A stretch of 64,000 nucleotides of DNA from Enterocloster aldenensis (GTDB lineage Bacteria > Bacillota > Clostridia > Lachnospirales > Lachnospiraceae): the NCBI RefSeq assembly GCF_003434055.1, contig NZ_QVEX01000006.1:269236-333235 (forward strand), read 5' to 3'. This document shows positions 51,166 through 60,253 of this stretch, piece by piece (position 1 is the stretch's first letter; every line of letters starts with the position of its first letter). The notes under the pieces were generated by a model. That model did no database searches. It was not told where the DNA came from and worked only from the letters and a program-made list of their open reading frames with translations. The position numbers were made by a program, and so were the translations under genes.

Positions 51166-51173
51166 ATATGACG

Positions 51174-51250
51174 AGGCACAAATCAGTGCCATATCTGGCA
51201 GGTTCCGGCTATCGCACTGGTAGGGTGCGAAGTATTTCCCAAAATCAAGT
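51174..51250 (+). promoter_or_regulatory. Structured pyrB leader with three hairpins
   Basis: Within 60 nt lie GGCAC-AAATCA-GTGCC, then CTGG-CAGGTT-CCGG, then TCGCAC-TGGTAGG-GTGCGA, followed by an A/T-rich spacer to the pyrB ribosome binding site. No PyrR-binding consensus and no obvious terminator was found. It may be a regulatory RNA or protein site; unassigned. Confidence 0.5.
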
Positions 51251-51284
51251 TTTTAATAAATCCATAATGGCAAAGGAGAATCCC

Positions 51285-52208
51285 ATGAGACATTTATTGA
51301 ATCCCTTAGACTTCTCTGTGGAAGAAATCGATGACCTTCTGGCTCTTGCAAGGGACATTGAGCAGAATCTTCCCCAGTACGCCCACGTGTGTGACGGCAA
51401 GAAACTGGCTACCCTTTTTTATGAGCCAAGCACAAGAACGCGTTTAAGCTTTGAGGCAGCCATGCTGAGCCTGGGCGGCAATGTATTAGGTTTTTCATCC
51501 GCCAACTCCAGTTCCGCCGCCAAGGGCGAAAGCGTTGCCGATACCATCCGCATGATTTCCTGCTATTCCGATATATGTGCCATGCGTCATCCAAAGGAAG
51601 GCGCTGCATTCGTAGCAGCCCAAAAGGCTCAGATTCCTGTCATCAATGCAGGTGACGGCGGTCATCAGCATCCCACCCAGACCTTAACCGATCTTATGAC
51701 AATCCGTTCCATGAAGGGACGCCTTGACAACCTGACCATCGGCCTTTGCGGCGACCTGAAATTCGGACGCACCGTACACTCCCTCATCAATGCCATGGTC
51801 CGATACCCCAACATCAAATTTATCCTAATATCCCCGCCTGAACTTCGTATTCCGGATAATATCCGCGAGGACGTGCTAACTGCCAACAACGTGGAATTCG
51901 AGGAAGTAGGCAACCTGGATGAAGCCATCGGCAAGCTGGACATCCTTTATATGACGCGTGTGCAGAAGGAGCGCTTCTTTAATGAAGAAGACTATATCCG
52001 GTTAAAAGACTGCTATATCCTGGACAAGAAGAAGATGAAACTGGCCAAGGAAGACATGTATGTGCTCCATCCCCTCCCAAGGGTAAATGAAATTTCCGTG
52101 GAAGTGGACGACGACCCAAGGGCCGCTTACTTTAAGCAGGCCCAGTATGGGGTATACGTGCGTATGGCCTTAATCATGAGATTACTGGAGGTGGAAAAAC
52201 CATGTTAA
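51285..52208 (+). CDS. pyrB: Aspartate carbamoyltransferase catalytic subunit
   Basis: 307 residues from the ATG at 51285 (AAAGGAG upstream; earlier in-frame starts fall in the leader). Committed step of pyrimidine synthesis. Carbamoyl-phosphate loop [17 protein letters not shown] (about 45-61), [12 protein letters not shown] (about 128-139), and [13 protein letters not shown] with [10 protein letters not shown]. Followed by pyrI with a 7-bp overlap, so this is the class B heteromeric, allosterically controlled enzyme. Confidence 0.97.
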
Positions 52209-52633
52209 ATATCAGCGGATTAAAAGAAGGCATTGTTTTAGACCACATCGAGGCCGGAAAAAGCCTGGATATCTATTATCACCTTGGCCTGGACAAGCTG
52301 GAATGCCAGGTAGCCATCATCAAGAACGCGCGCAGCAACAAGATGGGCCGCAAGGACATCATTAAGATTGAAGGCGGACTGGATACCGTGGACCTTAAGG
52401 TCCTTGGCTACATCGACCACACCATTACGGTGAATATCATTAAGAATGACAAGATTGTTGAGAAGCGGGCATTAAAGCTTCCCAAGAAGATCACCAATGT
52501 AATCCAGTGCAAGAACCCGCGCTGCATTACCTCCATCGAACAGGAACTTCCCCATATATTCTATCTGGCGGACGAGAAGAGCGAGACATACAGGTGCCAG
52601 TATTGCGAGGAGAAGTACAGCGAATTTAAGTAG
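52202..52633 (+). CDS. pyrI: Aspartate carbamoyltransferase regulatory subunit
   Basis: 143 residues. N-terminal nucleotide-binding domain ([21 protein letters not shown]) and C-terminal zinc domain with the four Cys as CKNPRC (about 105-110) and CQYC (about 132-135). It confers CTP/UTP feedback on PyrB. Overlap with pyrB implies coupled translation; a terminator follows 24 bp after the stop. Confidence 0.97.
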
Positions 52634-55286: not shown

Positions 55287-56915
55287 TTAATCTCTTTCCT
55301 GTGATGCATAGCAGCACACGCCGTTTACATAGGTGGCCTCCACCCGGATCCGGGCCAGTTCCCCGGCAGGCACCTCAAAGGGATTTGAATCCAGCACCAC
55401 GAAGTCCGCGGCCATGCCCGGCGCAATACGGCCTTTTTCATTTTCCTCAAAGGAAGCATGGGCGCCTTCAACCGTAAAGGAATCAAGGGCCTGCTGAACG
55501 CTCATGGCCTGCTCCATGAGATACGGTCCCACATGGTCCTTTACCGTTGTCCTGGTTACCGCGCACTGGATGCCCTTCATCACATCCGGCAGTTCCACCG
55601 GACAGTCGGAGCCGTTGGATGTATGGGTTGTCTCATACAAGGTCTTAAAGTTATAGCTGGATGCGGCCCGCTCCTTCCCGATGCGTTCTTCCACGATATG
55701 GATGTCGTAATCCAGGAAAATGGACTGGATATAGGCATGCAGGGACAGCTCTTCAAATTTCCTTAACTGGTCCGGCCTTGTTATCTGGCAGTGGACAATG
55801 CCGTGGCGGTGGTCCGGCCTTGGGCACTCTTTAAGGGCTTTTTCGTAAGCAGCCAGTATATCGTCCAGTATCCCGTCACCGATTGCGTGGATGGCCACCT
55901 GCATCCCATGGGAGTTGGCATAACCCACCATCTCCTCAAACTGTTCCCTGGTAAATATAGGAATCCCGCAGGTAGACGGATCGTCGGCATATGGCCTGCT
56001 TAAATACGCGCTCCTGGCGCCCAGTGAGCCGTCCCCCAGCATTTTTAACGGTCCGATCTTAAACCATGGGGTTCCCCATCCTGTATGATACCCTTTTTCC
56101 AGAAATCCTTTCAGGTCCTTTAAGGTGGTGAACTGGGACTGCTCATATACCCTGACCGTCATCCGGCCTTCCGCCTCCAGTTCCCTGTATGCCTCCAGCA
56201 CACGCTCATATGGCACATTGTTAAAGGCCAGCAGGTCATCGGTCTGGGAAGAGGTAACACCGCAGCGGTTCAGGGCATGGGATGCGGCGAGGATCATCTC
56301 CTTGATATCTTCCTTGGTGGGTTCGGGCAGGCGGCCGTATATCAGGTCCATTGCATTCTCACGGAAAATACCGTTGGGCCTGCCATCCGCCTCCACCTCG
56401 AACCTTCCCCCCTCCACCTGGGGCGTGTCCTTTGTGATACCGGTAAGCTCCAGGGCTTTGGTGTTGACCACACACGCGTGGCCGCAGGTCCTTATCAGGC
56501 AAATGGGATGTTCCATTGATATCCCGTCCAGGTCATGGCGGTCAGGGAAACGCCTGCCGTCCTCAAAGTAATCATGGTTCCATCCCCTGCCCTTGACCCA
56601 GGTCCCCGGCCTGATATTATGTTCAAGGATGAAATCCTTCATATATTCCTTCATCCCGCCCATGGATGTGGTATGGGCAGACAGGTCCGCCATGCGCAGC
56701 GCGTTGCCATAATTCAGAAGGTGCATATGGGAATCATTGAAACCGGCACAGACAAAACGGCCCTTAAGCTCCCTTATCCCATCCCCTTCTTCCTTAAAGG
56801 CCATTGCGCCTTCATTGGTACCGGCATACACGAACCGGCCATCTTCTGTCACAAAGGCCTCACACAGGGGAAGTTCCCCTGTGTACACGGCCCCGTTCCG
56901 GTATATTATCCTCAT
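55287..56915 (-). CDS. YtcJ-like metal-dependent amidohydrolase
   Basis: 542 residues, cytoplasmic. Amidohydrolase-3 fold: metal site FNDSHMHLLNYG (HxH, about 58-69), GVTSSQTDD, QVAIHAIGDGILDD (about 331-344) with metal His, HRHGIVHCQ, and the late Asp in TSNGSDCPVELP (about 443-454). The substrate is unknown; relatives hydrolyse N-acyl or cyclic amides. It lies 11 bp downstream of the AGCS symporter, so it belongs to the lysine-riboswitch transcript, which suggests an amino-acid-derived amide as substrate (inference). Confidence 0.87.
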   Translation of the reverse strand: MRIIYRNGAVYTGELPLCEAFVTEDGRFVYAGTNEGAMAFKEEGDGIRELKGRFVCAGFNDSHMHLLNYGNALRMADLSAHTTSMGGMKEYMKDFILEHNIRPGTWVKGRGWNHDYFEDGRRFPDRHDLDGISMEHPICLIRTCGHACVVNTKALELTGITKDTPQVEGGRFEVEADGRPNGIFRENAMDLIYGRLPEPTKEDIKEMILAASHALNRCGVTSSQTDDLLAFNNVPYERVLEAYRELEAEGRMTVRVYEQSQFTTLKDLKGFLEKGYHTGWGTPWFKIGPLKMLGDGSLGARSAYLSRPYADDPSTCGIPIFTREQFEEMVGYANSHGMQVAIHAIGDGILDDILAAYEKALKECPRPDHRHGIVHCQITRPDQLRKFEELSLHAYIQSIFLDYDIHIVEERIGKERAASSYNFKTLYETTHTSNGSDCPVELPDVMKGIQCAVTRTTVKDHVGPYLMEQAMSVQQALDSFTVEGAHASFEENEKGRIAPGMAADFVVLDSNPFEVPAGELARIRVEATYVNGVCCYASQERD

Positions 56916-56926
56916 GGTGCGTCCCC

Positions 56927-58390
56927 TTATCCTTTTTTCTGCATTTTCTTTTTGTCCTCATAGAACAGGGGGATGTCCTCCTCCAGGGTGCCGATGCCCA
57001 TGTAGCGGGCCTTATAATCCTTTAACAGCTTAAAGTAGGTGCCGGACAGGATCAGGACAACAAACACATTGATAAAGGTAGGGATACCACTTGTGATGTC
57101 CACCAGGGTCCAGATGCTTAAATCCCCTACATTAATCAGGTACAGGGTAAGGAGGAACGGCGGCAGGGCGTAAAAATACTTGAAAAGCATAAGCAGCCAT
57201 TTCTTCAGCACCGGGTGGTCCTTGGCCAGGTGGCGCAGGGTAACTTCATAATACACATACCAGCCCCCGGAAGTGGTGACAGAGAAAATCACCATGGTGG
57301 CTGTCATGAACACGGTCCCAAAGGAACCCAGGCTGTGCTGGAACACATTGAGGGCCAGGGTTGCATTGGTTGCGCCGGAGGTCCATTCTCCTGTTATCAG
57401 CACGCTGAGGGCCGTAATGGTACATACGATGAAGGTATCCACAAAGACCTCAAAGGAACCCCAAAGCCCCTGCTCCACCGGATGCCTGGTCTTGCTGGAA
57501 GCGTGTACCATGGGGCTGGTACCCCAGCCGGCTTCATTGGAGTATACGCTTCTCTGCATGCCTGTGGCAATGGCCTTGGACACGGTAACACCTGCAAATC
57601 CGCCCATGGCAGCGGTTCCTGTGAAGGCATTGGTAAAAATGGAAGCAATGGTGGGAACCAGGTTCCCGATGTTAAGGATGATGATTAAGACACCGAACAG
57701 CATATAACCAAGGCTCATCACAGGCACCAGCTTTACGAAGATCTTACTCAGGTTCTTAACCCCCCTCCAAATCAGGGCATAGATGAAGATGACCAGCATC
57801 AGGGAGGCCAGTTCCTGCTTTACCCCAAAGGACTGTGCCAGCACCTCGGAGGTGGTAAAATTAGAGGCGCTGATGAAAAAGGTGGAGAAAATGCCAAGGC
57901 CGAATATAAATGCCAGCGGAAGCCATTTCTTCCCCCAATGGCGCTCTTCCCCAAGGCCGTACTCCATATAGTAGGTGGGACCGCCGTAAGGGTTGCCTTC
58001 CTCGTCGGTGCGGCGGTAGTAAACAGCCAGGGTAACCTCAACCTGCTTAATCAGCATGCCTATGAAGGCGGTAAGCCACATCCACAGCACGGCTCCCGGT
58101 CCGCCCGTGGTCACGGCGGTGGCCACACCTGCAATGTTGCCAAAGCCCACGGAACCGCCAACCGCGGTGGCGATGGCCTCATAAGGGCTTAAAAGTCCTT
58201 TGTCATTTTCATCCTGCACATGGTCCTTGCGCAGGATACAGCCCAGGGTGCGCTTAAAGATGTAACCCAGATGGCGCACCTGGAAAAACCCGGACCGGAC
58301 CGTAACGTAAACACCGGTAATGATGATCAGCGCAATCAATGGCGGCCCCCATATGATTTCACCGTTGAGCCAGTTTAAAAAATCTGTCAT
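56927..58390 (-). CDS. AGCS-family amino acid:cation symporter
   Basis: 487 residues, about eleven membrane segments. Alanine/glycine:cation symporter family marks: GSVGFGNIAGVATAVTTGGPGAVLWMW (about 78-104, shown in part), GGPTYYMEYGLG, and ATGMQRSVYSNEAGWGTSPMVHASSKTRHPVEQG (in part). Imports a neutral amino acid in characterised members. Here it sits directly behind a lysine riboswitch with an expression platform, so lysine or a related amino acid is a likely substrate. RBS AAGGGGG precedes the ATG. First gene of a two-gene operon. Confidence 0.93.
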   Translation of the reverse strand: MTDFLNWLNGEIIWGPPLIALIIITGVYVTVRSGFFQVRHLGYIFKRTLGCILRKDHVQDENDKGLLSPYEAIATAVGGSVGFGNIAGVATAVTTGGPGAVLWMWLTAFIGMLIKQVEVTLAVYYRRTDEEGNPYGGPTYYMEYGLGEERHWGKKWLPLAFIFGLGIFSTFFISASNFTTSEVLAQSFGVKQELASLMLVIFIYALIWRGVKNLSKIFVKLVPVMSLGYMLFGVLIIILNIGNLVPTIASIFTNAFTGTAAMGGFAGVTVSKAIATGMQRSVYSNEAGWGTSPMVHASSKTRHPVEQGLWGSFEVFVDTFIVCTITALSVLITGEWTSGATNATLALNVFQHSLGSFGTVFMTATMVIFSVTTSGGWYVYYEVTLRHLAKDHPVLKKWLLMLFKYFYALPPFLLTLYLINVGDLSIWTLVDITSGIPTFINVFVVLILSGTYFKLLKDYKARYMGIGTLEEDIPLFYEDKKKMQKKG

Positions 58391-58449
58391 TTATTAAATC
58401 CCCCTTGTCTTTAGTCTGGATGCTGATGTGGATTTTCGGCAAAGAAAAA

Positions 58450-58469
58450 GCAACGGCCAAGGCCATTGC
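58450..58469 (-). terminator. Riboswitch terminator
   Basis: Minus-strand GCAATGGCC-TT-GGCCGTTGC followed by TTTTTC. It is located between the lysine aptamer and the symporter gene and would form when lysine is bound. Confidence 0.9.
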
Positions 58470-58500
58470 TTCCATACCGGTATCCTTATAACGGAACCAA

Positions 58501-58700
58501 CCAATAGCGCCACCACTTTGATTAAGTGAGAGTACACAGCCTGTTAAACTGTATCCCAACACATCCCACCGGCAGACGGGACCTGTTTCGGCGGAAGACC
58601 CTTTCCCTGTACGCCCGGCCTGCCGGCCGTGGAACGTATGCCATACGTTCCCTGACTTATGTCGTGTACAGGTACTGATGTTTACCGCGCCTCTATCGCA
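58501..58700 (-). promoter_or_regulatory. Lysine riboswitch (L box)
   Basis: On the minus strand the conserved core is present in order: GATAGAGGCGCGG, CATCAGTACCTGTAC pairing with GTACAGGGAAAGG, the invariant GCCGAAAC, GGTGGGA, a hairpin ATACAG...CTGTGT, ACTCTC, the CACTT/AAGTG stem, and CTATTG closing P1 with CGATAG. A terminator hairpin follows. It senses lysine and should lower transcription of the symporter and amidohydrolase genes when lysine is plentiful. Confidence 0.92.
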
Positions 58701-58710
58701 TCCTATTTTA

Positions 58711-59619
58711 TTAATGATTCCTTAACATCATACTATCAGAATCAGGAACTGTCAACATTTTTTCGCTTTCATGCCTGCTGCTGACCGCATGGATCAGCAC
58801 ATCCATGACTTCCTCAAAGCACACGCCATTGGCCGTGGGGATTTTTAATTCCTCGGAACGCCTGATGCACTGCTTCACAAAGGAGGCTGCCAGGCGCACC
58901 CCGTCCTCAAGCTTCCATCCCCTGACAGCTGCCGCAGCCACCACGGAGGAAAACACGTCCCCGGTTCCAGGCCTTTCCTGGCCCACCCGGATTGTTTTTG
59001 GAAAGGAAACCTCCCGTTCCCCTTCCGCCACTACATTCACCAGATAGCCGCCCTGGTTCACGCCGGTTATGACCACGGATTCAGGTCCCATGGCCTGGAT
59101 ATCCCTTGCCATCTCCTTTAATCCTTCCCTTGTCCAGCCTTTTTTGCGGTATGGCCTGTCCGTCAGGATGCAGGCTTCGGTCAGGTTGGGGGTGACGATG
59201 CTCCCCATGGATACCAGGGCTTTCATGCGCCTGCACATGACCTGTGTATAGGTGGCATAGGTTTCCCCGTGGTCGCCCATGATGGGGTCAATGATAATCT
59301 TCGTATCTTCATGTCCAAAATCCCGGATCATATCCATCACAATCCCGATCTGGTCTTCCGAACCCAGAAATCCGCTGACAATCCCGTCAAAGGACAGGTC
59401 CAGTTCCTTCCATTTCTCAATGTATCCAGGCATTCTGCCAGTATAATCATCAAAGAAATAGACCGGGAATCCGGTATGGTTGGATAGGATGGAGGTGGGG
59501 ATGGGACAGCACTGCACCTTCATGGCGGATATGATGGGGATAGCCACTGTCAGGGAACAGCGGCCGTATCCGGATAAATCATTTATCATTGCAATCTTCT
59601 TTTGGCGGTATCCACTCAT
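58711..59619 (-). CDS. Pyridoxal/pyridoxamine kinase (PfkB/ThiD-like)
   Basis: 302 residues. B6-vitamer kinase of the ribokinase superfamily: INDLSGYGRCSLTVAIPI (about 12-29, substrate region), PIMGDHGETYATY, TPNLTEACILTDRPY, and the GTGD anion-hole/catalytic motif in RPGTGDVFSSVV (about 217-228). Phosphorylates pyridoxine, pyridoxal or pyridoxamine. An ECF S-component gene starts the pair 13 bp upstream, consistent with vitamer uptake plus trapping. The C-terminal 25 residues are extra. Confidence 0.9.
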   Translation of the reverse strand: MSGYRQKKIAMINDLSGYGRCSLTVAIPIISAMKVQCCPIPTSILSNHTGFPVYFFDDYTGRMPGYIEKWKELDLSFDGIVSGFLGSEDQIGIVMDMIRDFGHEDTKIIIDPIMGDHGETYATYTQVMCRRMKALVSMGSIVTPNLTEACILTDRPYRKKGWTREGLKEMARDIQAMGPESVVITGVNQGGYLVNVVAEGEREVSFPKTIRVGQERPGTGDVFSSVVAAAAVRGWKLEDGVRLAASFVKQCIRRSEELKIPTANGVCFEEVMDVLIHAVSSRHESEKMLTVPDSDSMMLRNH

Positions 59620-59632
59620 ATCTGTCTCCTAA

Positions 59633-60253
59633 CTATCGTAACCGGTCAAACAGCCCGGCCCGTATGAGGGCGCTGCGAAGGGGCATGTAGATTGCCACCG
59701 AAACAAAGGTGGAGGTGACGGCATTGATGGAGGTGCTGGTGATGTTCCATGCCAGTACCAGCTGGGCCGCAGGCTTTCCCAGTATCAGCAGCTTGTAAAA
59801 ATATCCCACCATGGGGTCAAAAACCACATTGAACAGCAGTCCGCACACAGCCGCAGCCAGCACATAGCGCAGCACCTTCTTCTTATCACTGATTTCGTTA
59901 ATCCTCCCAAGCCGGTGGGCCACCAGTCCTGTTATGAGGCCGATGCACAGCTTAAGGATGAATGTCTTGGGCGCATATACCACATACACCGGGTCAAACA
60001 GGTCCCCGATGGTCATGCCGATGGCGCCGCCCAGGCCGCCGTAAAAGCCGCCTAATATAAGGGCGCCCAGCACGCACACCGCATTGCCCAGATGGATGGA
60101 CGTGGCGTCCCCGCCCGGAAGTGTGATCTTAATCTGCAAAAAGGTAAATACCACATAGGACATGGCTGCAAACAGCCCGGTCAGGGCCAGCTTATACAGA
60201 TGCTTCTCTTCCTCCCCCGCATATCCTTTGGCTGTTATCTGGTTCACTTTCAT
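59633..60253 (-). CDS. ECF transporter S component, probably for vitamin B6
   Basis: 206 residues with about six membrane segments. LALTGLFAAMSYVVFTFLQIKI at the start has the A-x-x-x-A helix that docks to EcfT, followed by LPGGDATSIHLGNAVCVLGALILG and FLKLCIGLITGLVAHRLGR. S-components confer substrate specificity; the adjacent pyridoxal kinase strongly suggests pyridoxine or pyridoxal (PdxU2-like). The energising EcfAAT genes are elsewhere. The RBS AGGAGTGAAAGCGT is adjacent to the ATG. Confidence 0.85.
   Translation of the reverse strand: MKVNQITAKGYAGEEEKHLYKLALTGLFAAMSYVVFTFLQIKITLPGGDATSIHLGNAVCVLGALILGGFYGGLGGAIGMTIGDLFDPVYVVYAPKTFILKLCIGLITGLVAHRLGRINEISDKKKVLRYVLAAAVCGLLFNVVFDPMVGYFYKLLILGKPAAQLVLAWNITSTSINAVTSTFVSVAIYMPLRSALIRAGLFDRLR

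What the first reader, a model, noticed from the sequence alone, without database searches (positions are those of the whole stretch)
55287..58700. Lysine riboswitch controlling an AGCS symporter and an amidohydrolase
A complete L-box aptamer with terminator precedes an alanine/glycine-type symporter and a YtcJ-like amidohydrolase. Lysine riboswitch transporters I know of belong to the LysP, NhaC-like LysW and ABC groups. An AGCS carrier under lysine control points to an unrecognised lysine (or lysine-derivative) importer and to a hydrolase that might release lysine from an amide or N-acyl form.
Basis: partly seen in the sequence, partly recalled or inferred. Interest (0 to 1): 0.75.

Follow-up and report, generated by a model that had tools for sequence, protein, structure and literature searches.

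The report
Lysine-switched transporter and amidohydrolase operon
A lysine-type RNA switch with an unusual binding-site core sits before a two-gene unit, an amino acid importer and an amide-cutting enzyme, that recurs in many gut Clostridia and probably salvages lysine from a masked (acylated) form.

Summary
RF00168 matches 58703-58497 (-) over all 182 positions at 84.3 bits. A terminator follows, then an AGCS symporter and, 11 nt on, a YtcJ-like amidohydrolase.

It is not a one-off. Of 80 related AGCS loci, 59 have an L box serving the AGCS/amidohydrolase unit and 74 have the amidohydrolase in the fetched stretch. Thirteen have the reversed order; 4 of these keep an L box. Leader pairing mostly fits an OFF switch, so the unit looks like lysine acquisition repressed by lysine. 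The enzyme shows no signal peptide by eye, so the carrier probably imports its substrate. N-epsilon-acyl-lysine is the best guess, as known epsilon-lysine acylases are YtcJ-like. Ligand, transport and enzyme substrate are untested.

The changed bases lie under the lysine pocket.

The parts
58727..58755 (-). promoter-like site, TTGACA-17-TATGAT
   Evidence: 11 of 12 consensus bases; consensus match only
58497..58703 (-). lysine riboswitch aptamer (RF00168), variant core, long P2 extension
   Evidence: 84.3 bits, model 1-182
58530..58530 (-). J4/5 nucleotide: C where RF00168 has G (G141 in T. maritima numbering)
   Evidence: numbering from PMC3764141 passages, mapping onto RF00168 is mine
58508..58512 (-). 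J5/1: UGGCG, 5 nt, where RF00168 has 4 nt (A162 G163 N G165)
58445..58473 (-). intrinsic terminator; its 5' strand (GCAAUGG) can pair with the P1 3' strand (CUAUUGG) as antiterminator
   Evidence: sequence; window duplex -12.8 and -11.2 kcal/mol (narrower stretch; 21 of 200 shuffles at least as stable)
56927..58390 (-). AGCS-family symporter, 487 aa
   Evidence: MmAgcS 6CSE, E 4.7e-70
55287..56915 (-). Amidohydro_3 (YtcJ-like) metal-dependent hydrolase, 542 aa; H63, H65, K291, H343, H375, D437 conserved

Best explanation
The locus is a lysine-repressed salvage operon. When lysine is scarce, the P1 3' strand of the leader pairs with the 5' half of the terminator and transcription runs into the genes. 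When lysine is plentiful, the folded aptamer holds P1 and the terminator forms. The AGCS carrier imports an amino acid whose side chain is not charged like lysine, most likely an N-epsilon-acyl-lysine, and the cytoplasmic YtcJ-like amidohydrolase cuts the amide to free lysine. Shown by computation: the parts, their order, their conservation and OFF-type pairing in most leaders with a parsed terminator. Inferred: lysine as ligand, the carrier's substrate, the enzyme's place and substrate.
For: Aptamer and genes. Linkage: 59 of 80 loci have an L box for the unit, 55 of them 74-305 nt before AGCS and 4 before the amidohydrolase in reversed units; the other 21 were scanned directly and have none in the fetched stretch, 3 of them cut by a contig end within 67-234 nt. 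Amidohydrolase near AGCS in 74 of 80 loci: just downstream in 59, upstream on the same strand in 13. In 9 genomes with 45 AGCS genes over the Pfam cutoff, 7 have an L box within 3 kb upstream, and all 7 are members of this clade (9 clade members in these genomes; 0 of the other 36) (tree). OFF logic: 40 of 56 leaders had a parsed terminator; 36 of 40 have a P1 3' strand/terminator duplex below -6 kcal/mol and 26 of 40 have z < -2 against shuffles. Salvage: lysA was not found in 7 of 40 genomes (40 of the 79 held were given), and all 7 carry the L-box AGCS unit. Enzyme: six metal ligands of the binuclear type conserved in over 95% of 68 sequences; an epsilon-lysine acylase is classed as YtcJ-like. 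Carrier: of acidic positions kept in over 90% of the clade, only two, near the C-terminus, are rare (at most 16%) outside it. Twenty-five other L boxes precede ABC solute-binding genes, so some of these genomes have another candidate lysine carrier.
Against: No biochemistry for this AGCS clade or enzyme branch was found. The aptamer's pocket floor is altered, so lysine as ligand is not certain. The window's own antiterminator is weak against shuffles (z -1.3, 21 of 200), 6 of 40 leaders pair no better than shuffles (L010, L012, L038, L042, L071, L079), and 16 of 56 gave no parsed terminator. Amidohydro_3/YtcJ is broad: it includes a taurine-conjugated bile salt hydrolase (PMC13081902, abstract and passages). 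The closest solved structures are uncharacterised at about 30% identity (3igh, 3icj). E71 is acidic in 88% of the clade and in 0 of 32 outgroup sequences and could be a lysine contact. Nine of 13 reversed units lack an L box.
Confidence: 0.5

Rival explanations
1. The AGCS carrier imports free L-lysine, and the amidohydrolase does something only loosely linked, such as cutting lysyl dipeptides or cyclic forms.
For: L boxes mark several lysine carriers; E71 is acidic in 88% of the clade and 0 of 32 outgroup AGCS; Foldseek lists an L-Lys/L-Arg carboxypeptidase (3MTW, 11% identity) among distant folds.
Against: The enzyme stays with the carrier in 74 of 80 loci, in both gene orders. L boxes before ABC solute-binding (25) and NhaC-like (24) genes occur in the same set of genomes. 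The one solved relative found, MmAgcS, is an alanine symporter.
Confidence: 0.25
2. The variant aptamer has changed its ligand and senses a lysine derivative rather than lysine.
For: G141C plus one extra J5/1 nucleotide in 54 of 60 AGCS-linked L boxes and 2 of 119 others; in 47 of 48 genomes with a variant AGCS L box and another L box, at least one other is canonical. The changed positions lie in the G11-G163-G141-A162 quartet that floors the pocket (PMC3764141 passages).
Against: OFF logic suits a product (lysine), not a substrate. Two variant L boxes precede ABC genes of the kind that canonical L boxes also precede. G11, G163 and the other core motifs are kept. Canonical-type L boxes serve the same two genes in L063, L065, L067, L076, L071 and L079.
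Confidence: 0.12
3. The unit imports and deacylates a precursor such as an N-acyl-diaminopimelate, feeding lysine synthesis or the wall.
For: L boxes also precede dap genes (a cluster of 38 dapA-like genes among the other L boxes). Thermotogales lysine operons listed in PMC5584792 hold an amidohydrolase gene (passages).
Against: The unit is kept in 7 genomes without a detected lysA, where diaminopimelate should not become lysine, if those assemblies are complete.
Confidence: 0.07
4. Plain AGCS alanine/glycine carrier that came under an L box by chance.
For: Family assignment only.
Against: L box directly before AGCS in 55 loci and before the reversed unit in 4, none at 36 other AGCS genes of 9 genomes; the clade has near-fixed changes such as Mm A73/A74 to GG and L279 to W.
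Confidence: 0.04

Closest known systems
Lysine riboswitch (L box, RF00168)
   Same: Five-helix aptamer over all 182 model positions, motifs AGAGG, GCCGAA, UGGG kept, terminator-based OFF layout.
   Different: J4/5 G141 is C; J5/1 has 5 nt (W-G-G-N-G) instead of 4; long P2 extension in the window.
C. difficile CD3100-3099: L box, YfcC carrier, M20D amidohydrolase (PMC11477304, passages)
   Same: L box before a carrier gene and an amide hydrolase gene.
   Different: Other carrier and hydrolase families; the passages give no tested function.
Thermotogales L-box lysine operons ending in an amidohydrolase (PMC5584792, passages)
   Same: An amidohydrolase under a lysine riboswitch.
   Different: It sits in the biosynthesis operon, without an AGCS carrier in the list; its family was not checked.
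AGCS family, MmAgcS (6CSE)
   Same: Homology over residues 5-454 of the query (E 4.7e-70); T366 and W370 kept (their pocket role is recalled, not read).
   Different: A73/A74 to GG, L279 to W; the region aligned near Q170 differs. Glycine riboswitches before AGCS genes are known (PMC5829553, listing; PMC11477304, passages), lysine ones were not met in the papers seen.
Epsilon-lysine acylases SmELA/SgELA (EC 3.5.1.17, PMC10699109)
   Same: Class of YtcJ-like metal-dependent amidohydrolases; HxH, H, H, D metal ligands.
   Different: From Streptomyces; sequences not compared; spacing of the listed residues differs somewhat.
Metal-dependent bile salt hydrolase BwBSH (PMC13081902)
   Same: YtcJ/PF07969 family with six metal-binding residues.
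   Different: Secreted, acts on taurine-conjugated bile salts; the window enzyme shows no signal peptide by eye and sits with an amino acid carrier.

Membership tests
Lysine riboswitch RF00168 | covariance-model score over the gathering threshold, full length | tested here: met
   84.3 bits vs 30, positions 1-182
Lysine riboswitch RF00168 | conserved core motifs outside J4/5 and J5/1 | tested here: met
   AGAGG, GCCGAA, UGGG present in the window
Lysine riboswitch, canonical core | G141 in J4/5 and 4-nt J5/1 (A162 G163 N G165) | tested here: not met
   C at 58530, UGGCG at 58512-58508
Lysine riboswitch RF00168 | binds L-lysine and terminates transcription with it | not testable with these tools
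   needs in-line probing and transcription assays; OFF-type pairing only predicted
AGCS symporters (TIGR00835, PF01235) | family model above curated cutoff | tested here: met
AGCS symporters | Na+-coupled transport of alanine or glycine | not testable with these tools
   needs uptake assays
YtcJ-like amidohydrolases (PF07969) | family model above cutoff and binuclear metal ligands HxH, K, H, H, D | tested here: met
Epsilon-lysine acylase (EC 3.5.1.17) | close sequence relation to SmELA/SgELA | not tested
Epsilon-lysine acylase (EC 3.5.1.17) | hydrolysis of N-epsilon-acyl-lysine | not testable with these tools
   needs enzyme assay

The most novel reading that the evidence does not exclude
The AGCS-linked L boxes are a distinct riboswitch variant. 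A C141-G pair replaces the G141-A162 part of the purine quartet under the ligand, and with it the aptamer now senses a lysine derivative, for example an N-epsilon-acyl-lysine or another metabolite of this salvage route, instead of lysine.
Probability: 0.12. Interest if true: 0.85.

Novelty: new variant of a known kind. Interest (0 to 1): 0.62.

Why it matters
It links a further carrier-hydrolase pair to lysine regulation and points to masked lysine as a nutrient for gut Clostridia. It gives a testable function to one clade of a common carrier family and to one branch of the poorly assigned YtcJ family. The near-fixed J4/5-J5/1 change is a natural experiment in how a riboswitch pocket can be rebuilt.

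Tried and rejected
Own-genome search: no genome is held for the window. Viral collection: no related locus. RNA-first search with the pattern of the main variant subtype: 2 of 391 class genomes, one the known unit in G001 and one a match inside a coding ORF with no RF00168 match; 4 of 150 family genomes, all four before this AGCS clade. The pattern does not cover the CUACA subtype and allows no mismatch, so it undercounts. L012 and L027 each had a second coordinate match on another contig number, and L016 one, dropped as coincidence. My first motif script misread several J4/5 sites because it took the first match; searches replaced it. still misfiled two rows: L155 has A141 and L235 is the cut copy of the L041 element (shared letters checked), which leaves 119 other L boxes. 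Of these, 22 were called G141 by motif and by eye rather than by the parser, and L214 is unresolved. In the tree, the fetched loci L118 and L137 did not pass the script's motif filter and are missing. Crystal-structure papers on the lysine riboswitch and AgcS were not held, so no direct ligand contacts are claimed. Enzyme structure prediction was good (mean pLDDT 94.6) but its two nearest solved relatives are uncharacterised. The carrier was not modelled. In print: the listings (6 papers; 20 of 28; 1; 2; 2; 20 of 35) showed, in titles and abstract starts, no paper on AGCS genes under L boxes or on this core variant; one search found none and one search's 25 listed rows held no lysine riboswitch at all. 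The library is openly licensed papers only; Rodionov 2003 was not held.

Full report
Observation. The L box is at 58703-58497 on the minus strand, 84.3 bits against a gathering score of 30. Downstream lie a terminator hairpin (58473-58445), an AGCS symporter ORF (56927-58390) and an Amidohydro_3 ORF (55287-56915), the two ORFs 11 nt apart. A promoter-like site lies 23 nt before the aptamer. The next genes on either side, a pyridoxamine-kinase-like gene and a seryl-tRNA-synthetase-like gene, look unrelated.

Conservation. An alignment of AGCS homologues was used to fetch 80 loci, the best 80 of 176 confirmed. RF00168 hits in 79 of their genomes (that of L058 is not held) were mapped to the loci by coordinates, and the sequences so placed were read from the loci and carry the L-box core. 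Thirty-eight different loci were also scanned directly. Of the 80, 55 have an L box 74-305 nt before AGCS and 4 (L063, L065, L067, L076, Bacillaceae-type) have it before the amidohydrolase in a reversed unit. The other 21 were all scanned directly without an RF00168 match; three of them (L013, L024, L037) have only 209, 234 and 67 nt upstream. The amidohydrolase is found in 74 of 80 loci (tblastn E up to 1e-8): just downstream in 59 (some cut by contig ends), upstream on the same strand in 13, elsewhere in L049 and L057; not in L023, L060, L061, L073, L075, L077. Next to these two families, the commonest neighbour clusters were an ABC ATPase-like one in 11 loci and an MFS-like one in 6; a cluster of 14 consists, in the examples shown, of reverse-strand frames over the same genes. 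So no third gene is general. These AGCS proteins group apart from 31 paralogues and MmAgcS and share near-fixed changes. The loci were chosen by similarity to this carrier, so the counts describe the clade, not all AGCS genes. In 9 of the genomes, 7 of 45 AGCS genes have an L box within 3 kb upstream, all in this clade.

Other L boxes of the same genomes. There were 120 non-AGCS hits, read. Their first downstream ORFs cluster as dapA-like 38, ABC solute-binding 25, NhaC-like 24, aspartokinase-like 9, lysA-like 6, BKACE-like 5, asd-like 4, YfcC-like 3 and smaller ones (the clustering also held L083, which belongs to the L065 unit). Names rest on tested members, for lysA, and for asd on the sequence; the ABC members scored below the lysine/arginine/ornithine model's cutoff.

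Core variant. In T. maritima numbering, G141, A162, G163 and G11 form the quartet under the ligand (PMC3764141, passages); mapping these numbers onto RF00168 is mine. The window has C for G141 and UGGCG for the 4-nt J5/1. Among 60 AGCS-linked L boxes (window included) 54 are C141 with a 5-nt J5/1 (L035 has UGACG; L023 was placed by motif), and 6 have G141 (L063, L065, L067, L076, L071, L079). Among the 120 others, one (L235) is the other end of the L041 element; of the remaining 119, 115 have G141 (22 of them called by eye), 1 has A141 (L155), 2 have the variant (L233, L234, both before ABC solute-binding genes) and 1 is unresolved (L214). In 47 of 48 genomes with a variant AGCS L box and another L box, at least one other is canonical. 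Fisher's test there (p about 1e-35) ignores common descent; the variant could be a single event on the AGCS tree.

Switch logic. In 56 leaders with the L box directly before AGCS (window included), 40 gave a terminator. The P1 3' strand pairs with the terminator's 5' strand below -6 kcal/mol in 36; 26 of 40 have z below -2 against 200 shuffles, and 6 of 40 do no better than shuffles. The window's own value is weak (z -1.3). Pairing partners appear to change together between leaders, by eye; no covariation test was run.

Function. Repression by lysine of a carrier and an apparently cytoplasmic amide hydrolase suggests that masked lysine is imported and freed. A YtcJ-like epsilon-lysine acylase makes N-epsilon-acyl-lysine the leading candidate (PMC10699109), and a neutral side chain fits an AGCS carrier better than lysine's charge does (inference). 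Seven of 40 genomes tested gave no lysA match yet keep the unit; 33 of 40 had a match, 12 of 40 over the curated cutoff, and some are metagenome assemblies that may be incomplete.

Known ground. L boxes before lysine synthesis genes and NhaC-like and YfcC carriers are described (PMC11477304, passages), there including YfcC with an M20D amidohydrolase. PMC5584792 holds the words symporter and AGCS nowhere in its main text and PMC2258182 not the words symporter or amidohydrolase; in PMC3766115 I searched only lysine terms and the six passages name no AGCS.

Noticed in passing
window 46786-46695 (-): ZMP/ZTP riboswitch, 51.9 bits.
   Followed up: no
window 51168-52633 (+): ORFs that read as aspartate carbamoyltransferase catalytic and regulatory chains side by side (by sequence only).
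   Followed up: no
window 58711-60253 (-): Pyridoxamine-kinase-like gene beside an ECF transporter S component, possibly a vitamin B6 salvage pair.
   Followed up: no
L016 4600-5010: AGCS unit with a terminator-like hairpin containing CAATAG but no aptamer found: the L box may have been lost while the terminator stayed.
   Followed up: partly
L144 2321-4722: THF riboswitch, then a small membrane gene resembling an ECF S component, then a distant AGCS paralogue.
   Followed up: partly
L143 1367-4452: Second amidohydrolase-AGCS pair in the Clostridium cadaveris genome, reversed order, no L box in the stretch.
   Followed up: partly
L162 871-1698 (+); also L237, L238, L239, L243: Five L boxes stand before a gene of one cluster; the member tested is a beta-keto acid cleavage enzyme (BKACE, PF05853), a family that includes a lysine-fermentation enzyme (recalled). 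Whether these L boxes are ON switches was not tested.
   Followed up: partly
L155: Lysine riboswitch with A at the J4/5 position before a lipoprotein-like ORF.
   Followed up: no
L233, L234: The C141 core variant also precedes ABC solute-binding genes in two genomes.
   Followed up: partly
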